From: Natronolimnohabitans innermongolicus JCM 12255
GTDB taxonomy: Archaea; Halobacteriota; Halobacteria; Halobacteriales; Natrialbaceae
Direction: 5' to 3'
Length of the DNA: 64,000 nt
NCBI RefSeq assembly: GCF_000337215.1
Contig: NZ_AOHZ01000044.1
Coordinates: 2,746-66,745 of the forward strand
The stretch's first letter is position 1; each line of letters starts with the position of its first letter. The notes beneath the pieces are model-generated. The model was not told where the DNA came from and did not search any database. It saw only the letters and a list, made by a program, of their open reading frames with translations. This document shows, piece after piece, positions 56,798 through 61,604 of the stretch. Position numbers and translations under genes: made by a program.

Positions 56798-57073
56798 ATA
56801 CCCCCCATTACCGGTAGCGGGGTCAAAAGGGTAGTGTTTCGTCGGCGCCGGAATCCGTCGCATTTCCCGGTTTTCGCGCTGAAATATCCAATTTGGGTGA
56901 GTGAATATCACACACGTCCGCGACCACACAGAACGTACCATCATAGCGGCCACGGCCGAACAACGTCTCACGCTACTCTCGCTCGCGAAGCGATTGTGGG
57001 TCGATAGCTCGCCACTCCTCACGCGAGACCGCACAAAAGAGTCAACTGTATCGAACCCTTGCTATTGATACAC

Positions 57074-57847
57074 ATGAATGTCCGCGTACAGGGGCCTGGA
57101 CCGACGTCCCCGTTCCTCAGCGCCCGCGATCTCTTCGAGACCGAACACGATCTCTCCCTCCCGGTCGAAGTCCGCCTCCGAGACGACCCCGACGAGCGGA
57201 CCTGGGCCGGTCACTACGACGACCGACACGTCCTCAACATCTCGAGACAGGCCGCCTCGAGCGCGATGGCTCGCGAACTCGCCCTCCACGAGTTCGCCCA
57301 CATGGCGCGCCACGAGCAGGAACATCCCTCACACACGCAGTCGACCGAAGAGGTGCTCTACCTTGCGCTGGCCGGCAAGAGCGTCGAGCGACGGAAGCTC
57401 GCCCACTGCTACCAGATCGCAAATCACATGAAAGACATCTACGCCGACGACATCACGCTCGCCGTCGGCCCCGGTCAGAAGCTCCTCTCGTTTCTCGAGT
57501 CGAGTCTCGCACTGGCGCTCGCCGACCGCCCCGAAACGCCGTCGCGGCCGGGCTTCGAGCGACTCTCCGCCAGCGCCGATCCCGAGATCACGGCCGTCAA
57601 CGCCGCCTTCGCGCTGGCGCTGGCCGAGCGCCACGAACTCGTCGACGACGACCACCGGCTGTACGACCTCGCTCACGCGGCCGCGATGGACGCCCCACAG
57701 GTCGACTTCGATGGGTTCAATCAGCGATTTCGCGACCTCGCTCGAGACCCGGACTCGAGTGCGTACCGGCAGGTCCTCGTCGACGCAACGCGCGCGTACG
57801 TCGACGGGAGCGAGAGCGGGCACAGCGGGCGGCCGGCTGCTGACTGA
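57074..57847 (+). CDS. DUF5781-family protein with HExxH motif
   Basis: Protein of 257 residues (ATG 57074, MNVRVQGPGPTSPF). Contains LALHEFAHMARHEQEHPSH, an HExxH zinc-peptidase-like motif, followed by a helical domain (KLLSFLESSLALALADRP, ITAVNAAFALALAERHEL). Predicted cytoplasmic. This haloarchaeal family is often found beside the aEF-2 gene, with which it is divergent here. Catalytic activity is not established. Confidence 0.82.
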   Translation: MNVRVQGPGPTSPFLSARDLFETEHDLSLPVEVRLRDDPDERTWAGHYDDRHVLNISRQAASSAMARELALHEFAHMARHEQEHPSHTQSTEEVLYLALAGKSVERRKLAHCYQIANHMKDIYADDITLAVGPGQKLLSFLESSLALALADRPETPSRPGFERLSASADPEITAVNAAFALALAERHELVDDDHRLYDLAHAAAMDAPQVDFDGFNQRFRDLARDPDSSAYRQVLVDATRAYVDGSESGHSGRPAAD

Positions 57848-57991: not shown

Positions 57992-58029
57992 TTTAATAGT
58001 TGATCTCTCCAAACGGATAACATATATTG
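57992..58029 (+). promoter_or_regulatory. Promoter of the CHAT cassette
   Basis: TTTAATAG at 57992-57999 preceded by a purine-rich CGAAGGGAAC (BRE-like) and located about 31 nt before the ATG at 58030, a strong archaeal core promoter for a leaderless transcript. Confidence 0.6.
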
Positions 58030-58821
58030 ATGTTCTCGCGCAAGGACTGGGGGGACGGATCGGATGAAGAGCGGTTTTCCGGGGAGTTGGCACGTCTGAA
58101 ACGCCAGGGTGCGAGCATTCTCGTCGTCGGCGCAGTACAGCGGGCACACCGACGAGCCATCTGTCGGCGGTTGTTCGGACAGGCGACCACGCAGCCACGG
58201 CGGCGACTCTTCGTCTCGACTACTGGCGATTGTCGCAGAACGTCGACACTCTTCGACGAGGCCACGGCGTCAGATCACCACGCGTTCATCAGTTACGAAG
58301 CCCACTCCCGCAGTGCCGGAGCTGCCGCCGGCAACGTCGAGACAGACGTCGAACTCGACGCCGGTTCGAAACCGGAATCGAACCCAAACCCGTACTCGAT
58401 CGGAGCGGACGACTCGTCGACCGATCCACAGTCTGATCCGCTCTCGGCGACCGAGGTAACCTCACTCGCCGAGTTGGGTATCGCCATCTCCAACGCCATC
58501 GAAACGTTCGAAACCGAGTCGAACGGTCTCGCCCCAGCGGAGCTTCGTATCGGCATCGAATCGCTGGCACCACTTCTCGAGGCGTACGGCGCCGAACGCG
58601 TGTTCAAGTTCGTCCACCTGACCAACGGACGAACGCGGGACATCGACGGGATGATTCACTATCATCTTCCCATGAAACGGGACACCGACGTCGTCTCGGT
58701 CCTGACGCCGCTTTTCGACATCGTCATCGAACTCCGTGAGCACAACGACACCGCACAACAACGGTGGACGATCAACGACGGTACCTGTTCTTCAGGGTGG
58801 CTGCCCATCGAGCAGTCGTAA
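58030..58821 (+). CDS. DUF7504-type degenerate RecA/KaiC-like protein
   Basis: Protein of 263 residues. Residues about 25-60 (GASILVVGAVQRAHRRAICRRLFG) occupy the place of a Walker A strand-loop-helix but lack the GK(S/T), so ATP binding is doubtful. A disordered acidic middle (residues about 95-145) leads to LAELGIAISNAIETFETES, LRIGIESLAPLLEAYGAERVFKFVHLTNGRTRDIDGMIHYH and LTPLFDIVIELREH, typical of RecA/KaiC-like cores in haloarchaeal signalling proteins. First gene of the CHAT cassette; a sensor or adaptor role is an inference. GC lower than flanking genes. Confidence 0.7.
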   Translation: MFSRKDWGDGSDEERFSGELARLKRQGASILVVGAVQRAHRRAICRRLFGQATTQPRRRLFVSTTGDCRRTSTLFDEATASDHHAFISYEAHSRSAGAAAGNVETDVELDAGSKPESNPNPYSIGADDSSTDPQSDPLSATEVTSLAELGIAISNAIETFETESNGLAPAELRIGIESLAPLLEAYGAERVFKFVHLTNGRTRDIDGMIHYHLPMKRDTDVVSVLTPLFDIVIELREHNDTAQQRWTINDGTCSSGWLPIEQS

Positions 58822-58893
58822 CGGCTACCCCCCGCCAGTCCGTACGACCGATATCCCGGCGTCTTCACCGACTTCGTGAACGCCCACTGCGCT

Positions 58894-60972
58894 ATGAAAC
58901 CGACCTTCGAACCAACTGACGACGGCCTCGAGATTATCGATCCGATCGAACGCCACCGATACCGGCTGACGACCGAGAGTACGGTGACGCCGGAGTCGGT
59001 GGAGACGGCTCGGATCCCGTTTCCGGTCGACGACGCCGTCAGCATTACGACGGACCAGATCAGACTCCCGTCGAGCGATCTCGTCTACGTGTTAGACGAG
59101 AGTGGACAGCTCCGCACCGAGGTTCGGCCGGCCGAACAGGAGACGCTTCCGGCCGGAGAGCACCTGCTCGATATTTCCGGCCCGATCAAACTCTATGCGA
59201 ACGTAGAGGGAACGGTCCACATCTACTCGGATATCGAGCATACGTATCTCTCGTTCGACGGCCAGCAACCGGTCGTCCTCGGCGCGCGGTCGTTTCACAC
59301 GCGCCCCGCGGAGACGATCGTCACGTCAGCCGAACCAACGGACGTGATGCAAGCGGTGACGGCGTTTGGGTCGGCACTCAAGACGATGACTCCCGAACGA
59401 TCGTATTCGACACTGCGCGGACACCCTCCCGAACTCAGACTTGGCGACGACCTTCACGTCCCCGACGGGCTTTCGAAACGAGAGACCGGCGTTCGACTCG
59501 AGATTCCGCCGACGCTATCACACGTCTGTACCGTGACGCCGCTGGCGTACTATCTCGGGGCCGACGTCGTTCCCGGAGCGAAGCCCCGCCTCACCACGTC
59601 GACCGGGTTCGAACGTGTACTCGGTCGTGACACGACGTTTGAGGAAGCGGTCTCGAGAACGCTCAAACAGACGTTCTTCCTCGACTGTATCGTCCGTACC
59701 GCGGGGACGACGCCGCTTCCACTGCACGAGCGACGGAAGCTCGAGCCGAACCTCCCGTTCGACATCGAAGCGGTCTACGACCGGTCGCTCGCCGAACGGC
59801 TCGAATCCTACTTCCAGGTATCCTTCGAGTCGATACGGTCGTCGCTTCCGAACTGGCACCTCGAAGTCCGTCTCGAACCCGTCGACGACGTCATCGAGTT
59901 TCTCCCGTTTGTCGCCAACGACCTGCCACTCGTCAGTATCGAAGACGCCGCGACGACGACAGGACCATCGACGCAGCAACAAACGCAGGCGATCGATGAC
60001 TTCATTCGCGGCGACACGAGCCAGACGTCGACAGCCGTGCGAAACGCGAGTCGGACCGATCCCACCTCGTCGCGCGGGGAGCGAACGACCATTCAGCAAT
60101 CCTGGCAGGTCGACAACACGTCCGAGATCACGAGTACGACCCCGCTGAGTGCGTATCACAACGGAATCGGGCGCGAACCACGCAACGGACCGATCGAGAT
60201 TAAGGTCGTCTGTAACGATCAGAGTATGCACGAGGAACTGGAAACGGTAAACGGCGTGTACGGGACACGCGAAGAGCTACCGTTCGACGTGACCACGTAT
60301 TACGATCTCACGAAAGCCGAGTTCGAATCCGTACTCGCGAGCGAAAGCGACTTCCTTCACTACATCGGCCACATCGACGACGACGGGTTCCAGTGTGCAG
60401 ACGGGAAGTTAGACGGTGCTCGAATCGAATCGACGGATACGAAGGCGTTTTTCCTCAACGCCTGCCAGTCCTACGAACAGGGGCTGCATCTGGTAGATGC
60501 GGGAAGCATCGGCGGAATCGTAACGCTCGACGACGTCGTCAACAGCGGCGCGGTCAGCGTCGGGAGTACGATCGCCCGCCTGCTAAACCGCGGCTTCCCG
60601 TTGTACGCTGCGCTCGATATCGCTCGCAAAGACAACATCATTGGAGAACAGTACCGAATCGTCGGCAACGGGATTACGACGGTCACACAGTCGAAGACTG
60701 GCGGTCCGAGTATGTGTACCCTGACCAGCGAGGGAGCACGACAGCGCATCAGCGTGTATACGTATATTACGCTCTGGTTGGGTCGAGGCGGTGTGTTCAC
60801 GCCGCACGTCGATTCGGTCGACGAATACTTCCTCTGTCCCGGCGCTGCAACCGATCTCACCGTCTCCGACGAGACGCTCGAGGAATACCTCAAAATGGAA
60901 CAGATTCCGGTTGTAACGGATGACGGCCTCTACTGGAGCCGGAGTCTCGTCGATTCCTCTCGACACTCCTAG
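58894..60972 (+). CDS. CHAT-domain (caspase-like) protease
   Basis: Protein of 692 residues (GTG 58876 possible). The N-terminal 400 residues are an unrecognised beta-rich region (KLYANVEGTVHIYSDIEHTYL, LSHVCTVTPLAYYLGADVV), then a disordered Ser/Thr linker (about 360-420). The C-terminal part is a CHAT protease: catalytic His in FLHYIGHIDDDGF (about residue 493) and catalytic Cys in FFLNACQSYEQGL (about residue 524), followed by GIVTLDDVVNSGAVSVGSTIARLLNRGFPLYAALDIAR. No membrane segment. CHAT proteases act in cell-death and anti-phage systems. Its TAG stop overlaps that of the convergent peptide gene. Confidence 0.8.
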   Translation: MKPTFEPTDDGLEIIDPIERHRYRLTTESTVTPESVETARIPFPVDDAVSITTDQIRLPSSDLVYVLDESGQLRTEVRPAEQETLPAGEHLLDISGPIKLYANVEGTVHIYSDIEHTYLSFDGQQPVVLGARSFHTRPAETIVTSAEPTDVMQAVTAFGSALKTMTPERSYSTLRGHPPELRLGDDLHVPDGLSKRETGVRLEIPPTLSHVCTVTPLAYYLGADVVPGAKPRLTTSTGFERVLGRDTTFEEAVSRTLKQTFFLDCIVRTAGTTPLPLHERRKLEPNLPFDIEAVYDRSLAERLESYFQVSFESIRSSLPNWHLEVRLEPVDDVIEFLPFVANDLPLVSIEDAATTTGPSTQQQTQAIDDFIRGDTSQTSTAVRNASRTDPTSSRGERTTIQQSWQVDNTSEITSTTPLSAYHNGIGREPRNGPIEIKVVCNDQSMHEELETVNGVYGTREELPFDVTTYYDLTKAEFESVLASESDFLHYIGHIDDDGFQCADGKLDGARIESTDTKAFFLNACQSYEQGLHLVDAGSIGGIVTLDDVVNSGAVSVGSTIARLLNRGFPLYAALDIARKDNIIGEQYRIVGNGITTVTQSKTGGPSMCTLTSEGARQRISVYTYITLWLGRGGVFTPHVDSVDEYFLCPGAATDLTVSDETLEEYLKMEQIPVVTDDGLYWSRSLVDSSRHS

Positions 60973-61094
60973 GGGCCGTGGTAGAAGCCGCTCGAGGCGG
61001 CGGCCGATCCGGCCTGTGACAGCGCGAGCATGATGGTAAACAGGACGCCGATCATTCGTGGGTGGTTCTTCAGGTACTGTGGTAGGTCGCTCAT
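60969..61094 (-). CDS. 41-residue membrane peptide, DUF7503-like, convergent with CHAT
   Basis: Starts MSDLPQYLKNHPRMIGVLF and has one hydrophobic segment (MIGVLFTIMLALSQAGSAAA) resembling a membrane helix or signal peptide with an AxA-type end, then a short SSGFYHGP tail. Such peptides recur in haloarchaeal genomes near DUF7504-type genes. Its TAG and the CHAT TAG interleave in the palindrome CTAG (60969-60972). Preceded by an AT-rich promoter with a perfect palindrome. A toxin, antitoxin or protease substrate are all possible. Confidence 0.72.
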   Translation of the reverse strand: MSDLPQYLKNHPRMIGVLFTIMLALSQAGSAAASSGFYHGP

Positions 61095-61121
61095 GGTACA
61101 TGATAGACGATGACGCGAAAG

Positions 61122-61147
61122 ATGATAAATTTATTTTAATTTATCAT
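61122..61147. promoter_or_regulatory. Perfect AT-rich palindrome in the peptide-gene promoter
   Basis: ATGATAAATT-TATTTT-AATTTATCAT: 10-bp perfect arms around a 6-bp loop, 28-53 nt upstream of the 41-residue peptide's ATG, where TBP and TFB should bind. A natural operator, and possibly shared with the divergent gene at 61206 whose TATA-like TTTAAAAG lies at about 61184. Confidence 0.7.
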
Positions 61148-61205
61148 ATAAATATACTATGGTGTTATTTAATGGCATGGGTGTTTAAAAGTACAGAGAA
61201 GCCAG

Positions 61206-61604
61206 ATGCCGGACCAATCGGCGCCACTCACCGTAGTACGCGTCCGTTCGTCGGCGGGCGTCGCAATTGGGGATTCGAGAGTTCGCCACGAATCGCAGTC
61301 GATTGCGACCGACACTCGACATCACTCCACGGACGGACCGATACCGGCCGTCGACGCCGAAATCGACCCGCTGTACAGCGACGGTAACGCGGTCCGGCAA
61401 CGGTTCCAACTCGAGAGACTGGTAGCTCGTATCCACGCTGCCCGTACCGCCGCCTATCCCGCAGTCGGTCGTGCAGTAGTGCCAGCCGCTACGAGCGGTG
61501 GATCGGGAGACAGAGCCAACGGGTTTCCGAGACGCGTCGAAAGCGATACCGATGATCCGGCGGGTCGCCGGCTAACACGCAAAAAGACGGGAAGACTCGC
61601 TTAG
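61206..61604 (+). CDS. Hypothetical protein, divergent from the membrane peptide
   Basis: Frame of 132 codons starting MPDQSAPLTVVRVRSSAGVA with a TATA-like TTTAAAAG about 20-25 nt upstream. Composition is Arg/Ala/Asp-rich without membrane segments; a middle part (VRQRFQLERLVARIHAARTA) could be helical. It ends 4 nt into the rpsG gene on the opposite strand. No family recognised and codon use is only moderately convincing, so it may be spurious. Confidence 0.4.
   Translation: MPDQSAPLTVVRVRSSAGVAIGDSRVRHESQSIATDTRHHSTDGPIPAVDAEIDPLYSDGNAVRQRFQLERLVARIHAARTAAYPAVGRAVVPAATSGGSGDRANGFPRRVESDTDDPAGRRLTRKKTGRLA

What the first reader, a model, noticed from the sequence alone, without database searches (positions are those of the whole stretch)
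57992..61147. CHAT-protease cassette between aEF-2 and ribosomal protein S7
Seen: a degenerate RecA/KaiC-like gene, a 692-residue protein whose C-terminus has CHAT motifs (YIGH, then NAC 31 residues later) and a large unrecognised N-terminal region, and a convergent 41-residue membrane peptide, under their own promoters. Known: CHAT (caspase HetF associated with TPRs) proteases are effectors in bacterial programmed-death and anti-phage systems; in archaea S7 and EF-2 genes are usually adjacent. Inferred: a sensor (DUF7504-like), executioner (CHAT) and small membrane partner inserted as a unit. GC is visibly lower than in flanking genes (not computed).
Basis: partly seen in the sequence, partly recalled or inferred. 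Interest (0 to 1): 0.82.

Follow-up and report, generated by a model that had tools for sequence, protein, structure and literature searches.

The report
Haloarchaeal caspase-like protease with membrane micropeptide
Salt-loving archaea almost all carry a caspase-like (CHAT) protease gene that is nearly always paired tail-to-tail with a gene for a tiny membrane peptide, a two-gene unit with no described function that could explain the unassigned caspase activity measured in these organisms.

Summary
In a haloarchaeon, between aEF-2/DUF5781 and rpS7, lie a DUF7504 gene (predicted KaiC C1-like fold, Walker A lost), a 692-residue protein and a convergent 41-residue DUF7503 gene. A confident model (pLDDT 88) of the 692-mer matches SAVED-CHAT, gingipain, separase and Craspase; His493 and Cys524 are invariant in 60 homologues. 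The CHAT call therefore stands, although the window's own copy scores on no library.

The interpretation needs changing. This is not a sporadic cassette: CHAT homologues occur in 71 of 81 sampled haloarchaea and DUF7503 in 66, never without CHAT. 121 of 124 DUF7503 genes lie convergent just behind a CHAT gene. CHAT–DUF7503 is thus the core unit and DUF7504 is optional. At the EF2–S7 junction the unit appears to be a single insertion in one Natrialbaceae clade; relatives carry it elsewhere. There are no PADLOC, phage or viral-contig matches.

DUF7503 has an invariant [HN]P[RK] before a hydrophobic helix, a signal-peptidase-like V/A-x-A site and a variable 8–9-residue tail, usually ending GP. 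Best explanation: a stress-regulated caspase-fold protease with a dedicated membrane partner, probably its substrate or anchor. Function is untested. A secreted-peptide reading is not excluded.

The parts
58027..58821 (+). DUF7504 protein, KaiC C1-like fold with lost Walker A; optional upstream partner
   Evidence: PF24336 E 8e-57; model pLDDT 83.9 matches KaiC C1, best E 1.4e-6; no GKT/S in 40 homologues
58894..60972 (+). 692-aa CHAT (clan CD, caspase-fold) cysteine peptidase; N-terminal domain about residues 1-350, low-confidence linker about 354-395, C-terminal CHAT domain
   Evidence: model pLDDT 88.4, pTM 0.89; PDB fold matches SAVED-CHAT, gingipain, separase, Csx29; 21 of 60 homologues match PF12770 at E <= 1
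60370..60372 (+). codon of predicted catalytic His493
   Evidence: invariant in 60 homologues; kept in Methanocella-like homologues (IGH)
60463..60465 (+). codon of predicted catalytic Cys524 (LNAC)
   Evidence: invariant in 60 homologues; NSC in Methanocella-like homologues
60969..61094 (-). DUF7503, 41-aa single hydrophobic-helix peptide, convergent with the CHAT gene (stop codons overlap)
   Evidence: PF24335 E 2e-21; 121 of 124 family members lie convergent just behind a CHAT gene
61053..61064 (-). DUF7503 HPRM motif (residues 11-14), invariant [HN]-P-[RK] in 72 of 72 non-redundant sequences
60996..61052 (-). DUF7503 hydrophobic helix ending in SQAG-x-[VA]-x-A (residues 15-33)
60972..60995 (-). 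DUF7503 variable C-terminal tail SSGFYHGP (residues 34-41)
   Evidence: tail 8-9 aa in 63 of 72; ends GP in 61 of 70
61095..61240 (-). AT-rich promoter-like region of DUF7503 (GC 0.384)

Best explanation
The unit is a haloarchaeal caspase-fold protease module. Shown by sequence and prediction: the 692-aa protein is a CHAT-type clan CD cysteine peptidase with an intact His493/Cys524 dyad and a large conserved N-terminal domain, and it is genetically tied to DUF7503, a tiny single-helix peptide whose charge pattern predicts its N-terminus inside and C-terminus outside. Inferred: the protease is cytosolic and held in check; a stress signal, relayed in many lineages by the KaiC-like pseudo-ATPase DUF7504, activates it; and DUF7503 is its dedicated membrane partner, either substrate or anchor. 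In the substrate form the protease would act on the short cytosolic part of DUF7503, around the invariant [HN]P[RK] motif at the membrane edge, and thereby change what the membrane peptide does (permeability or signalling). Near-universal conservation next to core genes favours a physiological stress or cell-fate role over a sporadic phage-defence island. The family is a concrete candidate for the unassigned caspase-like activity of Haloferax.
For: Dyad invariant in 60 of 60 homologues and kept in Methanocella-like outgroups. Model pLDDT 88.4; PDB matches SAVED-CHAT E 5.7e-7, gingipain, separase and Csx29. 21 of 60 homologues score on Pfam CHAT at E <= 1, best 7.6e-5. DUF7503 convergent behind CHAT in 70 of 72 and 51 of 52 cases; no haloarchaeal genome in the phylum sample has DUF7503 without CHAT (66 both, 5 CHAT only, 0 DUF7503 only, 10 neither). 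DUF7503: P 72/72, R/K 72/72; K/R 137 on the N side against 9 in the tails. Complete DUF7504-CHAT-DUF7503 triads in all 12 Haloferax loci; Haloferax volcanii rings for DUF7503 and DUF7504. PMC3615174: high caspase-like activity in Hfx. volcanii, protein still to be identified.
Against: No biochemistry. P1 specificity is unknown: the residue two before Cys is Asn, neither the acidic residue of Arg/Lys-specific metacaspases nor the Gln of caspases (own knowledge of those families), so cleavage at Pro-Arg/Lys is a guess. The invariant R/K also fits the ordinary positive-inside rule. Many CHAT paralogues and the tandem second copies lack DUF7503, so DUF7503 cannot be the only substrate. The His-Cys distance in the model was not measured (no coordinates).
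Confidence: 0.5

Rival explanations
1. DUF7503 is the precursor of a short secreted peptide: a Sec-type signal sequence is cleaved at the [VA]-x-A site and an 8-9-residue tail ending in Gly-Pro is released as a cell-cell signal, with the CHAT protein on the response or immunity side.
For: -3 is V/A in 64 of 70 and -1 is A/G in 70 of 70, while -2 also allows V, M, L, S, T; tail length is 8-9 in 63 of 72, its sequence varies and it ends GP in 61 of 70; K/R lie N-terminally.
Against: The hydrophobic stretch and its N-side ([HN]P[RK]M, G[VA]LFT, SQAG) are far more conserved than a disposable signal sequence needs; no exporter or receptor gene travels with the unit; position -2 is mostly Ala; no SignalP-type test was available.
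Confidence: 0.2
2. Abortive-infection or programmed-death defence system: DUF7504 senses infection, CHAT executes, DUF7503 permeabilises the membrane (the first reader's view, similar in logic to protease-gasdermin or Craspase systems).
For: CHAT proteases act in such bacterial systems (SAVED-CHAT and Craspase are the nearest solved folds); copies also lie on megaplasmids; multiple divergent copies per genome.
Against: No PADLOC match; no phage or viral-contig homologue; near-universal distribution and a stable place between translation genes within the clade.
Confidence: 0.2
3. DUF7503 is a small membrane toxin of the type I kind, and the convergent CHAT transcript or protein is its antisense control or antidote; the peptidase activity is secondary.
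For: Tiny hydrophobic peptide, AT-rich promoter-like region of its own, strict tail-to-tail orientation with a short or zero gap.
Against: The dyad is invariant, so proteolysis is under selection; the gap varies from 0 to about 1 kb, so antisense overlap is not conserved.
Confidence: 0.08
4. Mere housekeeping neighbours without functional link, a co-location frozen by vertical descent.
For: Clade-wise fixed positions.
Against: The pair is kept together at unrelated genomic places and on plasmids, with 121 of 124 linked and no DUF7503 without CHAT.
Confidence: 0.02

Closest known systems
CHAT peptidases of bacterial immunity: SAVED-CHAT (PDB 8tl0) and TPR-CHAT/Csx29 of Craspase (PDB 8eey, 8d9g, 7zoq)
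   Same: Caspase-fold C-terminal domain with His-Cys dyad behind a large N-terminal regulatory region; best fold matches
   Different: No TPR or SAVED domain detected in the window protein; a different, haloarchaeal N-terminal domain; no PADLOC match; partnered with a 41-aa membrane peptide
Bacterial gasdermin with adjacent caspase-like protease (from own knowledge)
   Same: Caspase-fold protease gene beside a gene for a membrane-active partner
   Different: DUF7503 is a 41-48-aa single helix, not a gasdermin; the genes are convergent; cleavage is not shown
Separase and gingipains (clan CD)
   Same: Same catalytic fold
   Different: No detectable sequence kinship; gingipains are secreted and separase acts on cohesin (own knowledge)
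Caspase-like activity of Haloferax volcanii (PMC3615174)
   Same: Same organism group; needs a caspase-type enzyme whose gene was unassigned in 2012
   Different: The measured activity cleaves after Asp; P1 preference of this family is unknown, and the 20S proteasome is an alternative source
KaiC / RecA-like regulators (for DUF7504)
   Same: KaiC C1 fold predicted
   Different: Walker A motif lost, so probably no ATP hydrolysis

Membership tests
CHAT domain family (Pfam PF12770) | Profile match | tested here: inconclusive
   The window protein itself has no match; 21 of 60 homologues match at E <= 1, best 7.6e-5
CHAT domain family (Pfam PF12770) | Caspase-haemoglobinase fold | tested here: met
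   Model pLDDT 88.4; top PDB match SAVED-CHAT, then gingipain and separase
CHAT domain family (Pfam PF12770) | Catalytic His and Cys at the ends of two core strands | tested here: met
   H493 after strand 485-491 and C524 after strand 516-522, invariant in 60 homologues; the 3D distance was not measured
CHAT domain family (Pfam PF12770) | Peptidase activity | not testable with these tools
   Needs biochemistry
TPR-CHAT / Csx29 (Craspase) | N-terminal TPR repeats | tested here: not met
   No TPR match in the window protein or among the families listed for 60 homologues
TPR-CHAT / Csx29 (Craspase) | Association with Cas7-11 | not tested
   Flanking genes are aEF-2, DUF5781, S7 and S12; no cas-specific search was made
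SAVED-CHAT | SAVED cyclic-nucleotide sensor domain | tested here: not met
   No SAVED match in Pfam or PADLOC; the fold match covers only about 200 columns of the query
Known anti-phage defence system | Match to a PADLOC model | tested here: not met
   (one weak JAB hit in one homologue)
DUF7504 (PF24336) | Above curated cut-off | tested here: met
   193 bits against 27
Active KaiC/RecA ATPase | Walker A GKT/S | tested here: not met
   Absent in the aligned DUF7504 proteins
DUF7503 (PF24335) | Above curated cut-off | tested here: met
   75.8 bits against 27
Secreted peptide precursor | Signal sequence with -3,-1 small residues and a released short mature peptide | tested here: inconclusive
   The -3/-1 pattern and fixed tail length are present; release is untested and the helix is more conserved than expected

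The most novel reading that the evidence does not exclude
A pan-haloarchaeal two-gene system in which a caspase-fold CHAT protease and a convergently encoded 41-48-aa peptide (conserved membrane helix plus variable Gly-Pro-ended tail, possibly released as an extracellular peptide) control cell fate. It would be an archaeal protease-peptide signalling or death module unlike described ones, and the genetic source of haloarchaeal caspase activity.
Probability: 0.2. Interest if true: 0.85.

Novelty: new variant of a known kind. Interest (0 to 1): 0.62.

Why it matters
Caspase-like activity was reported in Haloferax as the dominant proteolytic activity, tied to salt stress, while archaeal genomes were said to lack clear caspase homologues (PMC3615174). 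This family supplies a concrete, genetically tractable candidate present in all 12 Haloferax loci examined, and a strictly linked micropeptide partner whose role can be tested directly. Almost all plasmid-borne homologues are still annotated 'hypothetical protein', and no paper found mentions DUF7503 or DUF7504.

Tried and rejected
Sequence-only PDB searches found nothing, alone or with a profile. A window-specific inverted repeat in the DUF7503 promoter (tgataaatt...aatttatca) was considered as an operator but is not shared by relatives. A strict TATA regular expression matched only 36 of 74 upstream regions (about 5 expected from shuffles), so the promoter claim rests mainly on shared AT-richness. 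The alternative upstream gene in Haladaptatus, Halomarina and Halorussus was tested as a diverged DUF7504 and rejected (HHalign probability 0.3%). The DUF7504 gene about 11 kb from the second CHAT paralogue in this genome (L118) sits among unrelated housekeeping genes and was not treated as part of a unit. The viral fold library gave two uninformative matches at E <= 0.001. DdvA appears in the PDB list with an rmsd near 20 angstrom and was not followed as real similarity.
Full report
Observation. The window is from a haloarchaeon (genome G000, 4.6 Mb). Between aEF-2 plus DUF5781 and ribosomal proteins S7/S12 lie, as reported, a DUF7504 gene (58027-58821 +), a 692-aa ORF (58894-60972 +) and a convergent 41-aa DUF7503 gene (61094-60969 -). 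The two DUF assignments are far above the curated cut-offs. The 692-mer itself matches nothing in Pfam, NCBIfam, PADLOC, PHROGs or PDB sequences. GC of the 692-codon gene is 0.598 against 0.650 for the window, in the lowest 3% of windows, while the ribosomal neighbours are 0.62-0.63.

What the large protein is. Its homologues are abundant in haloarchaea. In alignments of 29 and 60 of them, His489, Gly492, His493, Asn522, Cys524 and Ser526 are invariant. 21 of the 60 match Pfam CHAT at E <= 1, best 7.6e-5. The AlphaFold2 model has pLDDT 88.4 and pTM 0.89, and its closest solved structures are SAVED-CHAT (E 5.7e-7), gingipain R, separase and the Csx29/TPR-CHAT subunit of Craspase, with procaspase-3 lower. 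The fold and dyad are therefore well supported; activity is not shown. The N-terminal ~350 residues gave no clear fold match of their own and carry a strictly conserved RGHPP loop; their role is unknown.

The obligate partner. In 61 relatives, 70 of 72 DUF7503 genes lie convergent behind a CHAT gene, median gap 53 bp. In further genomes of the phylum sample the count is 51 of 52. Of the three exceptions, one is at a contig end, one is 4.5 kb away, and one is on the same strand. In the sampled haloarchaeal order, 66 genomes have both genes, 5 CHAT only, 0 DUF7503 only and 10 neither (Fisher p 1.6e-9, phylogeny not corrected). DUF7504 is next to CHAT in about 50 of 80 loci and is absent there in the Haloarcula group, several Haladaptatus, Halomarina and Halococcus loci, where unrelated genes take its place.

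DUF7504.

DUF7503. In 72 non-redundant sequences [HN]-P-[RK] is invariant and the spacing from it to an Ala/Gly 20 residues on is fixed. Between them lies a hydrophobic helix with conserved G[VA]LFT and SQAG. Positive charges are N-terminal (137 K/R against 9 in the tails), predicting N-inside, C-outside. Positions -3 and -1 before the tail obey the signal-peptidase rule (V/A in 64 of 70; A/G in 70 of 70), and the tail is 8-9 residues in 63 of 72 and ends Gly-Pro in 61 of 70 while otherwise variable. Upstream regions are strongly AT-rich (GC 0.26-0.29 between -80 and -20). Two readings remain open: an anchored membrane micropeptide, or a precursor of a secreted short peptide. The strong conservation of the helix favours the first.

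Place and history. In 30 CHAT proteins of Natrialbaceae loci the unit sits at the EF2-DUF5781 / S7-S12 junction, often with a second CHAT copy without DUF7503; these form one clade (SH-aLRT 100) with two changes of place on the tree. In ten other genomes of the same family EF2 and S7 are only 1.0-1.4 kb apart, which leaves room for DUF5781 alone (inferred from length; these stretches were not read). Those genomes mostly carry CHAT-DUF7503 elsewhere. So the unit appears to have entered this junction once, in one clade, while its presence in the genome is near-universal. Copies also occur on 25 haloarchaeal plasmids, annotated hypothetical apart from one 'CHAT domain-containing', one 'caspase family' and one record without annotation. 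No phage or viral-contig relatives were found.

Mechanism. Shown: fold, dyad, linkage, topology pattern. Inferred: a regulated cytosolic protease whose membrane partner is DUF7503, as substrate or anchor, with DUF7504 as an optional regulator. Cleavage at [HN]P[RK] is attractive because several clan CD peptidases cut after Arg/Lys (own knowledge), but the Asn two before the catalytic Cys does not favour a basic P1, so this is a hypothesis only. A role in the haloarchaeal caspase-like activity linked to salt stress (PMC3615174) is plausible: all 12 Haloferax loci found carry the full triad, and Hfx. volcanii itself rings for DUF7503 and DUF7504. The 20S proteasome is an alternative source of that activity.

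Verdict. Observation confirmed; interpretation partly supported. CHAT peptidases are known; the haloarchaeal N-terminal domain, the strictly convergent micropeptide partner and the near-universal distribution make this a new variant of a known kind. No earlier description of the pairing was found in the library searched.

Noticed in passing
window 57059-57847 +: DUF5781 protein (PF19093, E 2.6e-131) with an HEFAH motif and a weak M78/IrrE-type peptidase match lies next to aEF-2; it is also present between EF2 and the unit in the Natrialbaceae loci, a possible second peptidase beside the translation genes.
   Followed up: no
EF2-rpS7 junction in relatives (e.g. G014, G015, G018, G025, G026): Several relatives without a close CHAT homologue also have 4-8 kb between EF2 and S7, so the junction may be a recurrent insertion site.
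   Followed up: no
L031, L032, L033, L036, L037, L042, L045, L046, L048 (between DUF7503 and rpS7): A second, faster-evolving CHAT gene without DUF7503 follows the unit in many Natrialbaceae; its copies form one clade.
   Followed up: partly
L118:15065-17506 - (G000 contig C3): The window's own genome has a second, distant CHAT paralogue (36% identity) beside glyA-like and other housekeeping genes, without DUF7503.
   Followed up: partly
L121:6562-8400 +, L122:6308-7954 -: Methanocella-like genomes carry a solo CHAT homologue close to a gene resembling archaeal DnaG primase, with the dyad kept and no DUF7503.
   Followed up: partly
L106:7887-8894 +, L108:7876-8925 +: Two Haladaptatus DUF7504 proteins carry a roughly 90-residue N-terminal extension that looks like a separate domain.
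   Followed up: no
G143:C1:486534-486796 and G031:C19:2670-2931: Tandem duplicated DUF7503 genes behind one CHAT gene.
   Followed up: no
CHAT protein residues 169-179: Strongly conserved RSxPTLRGHPP loop in the N-terminal domain, not kept in Methanocella-like homologues; possible ligand or partner site.
   Followed up: no
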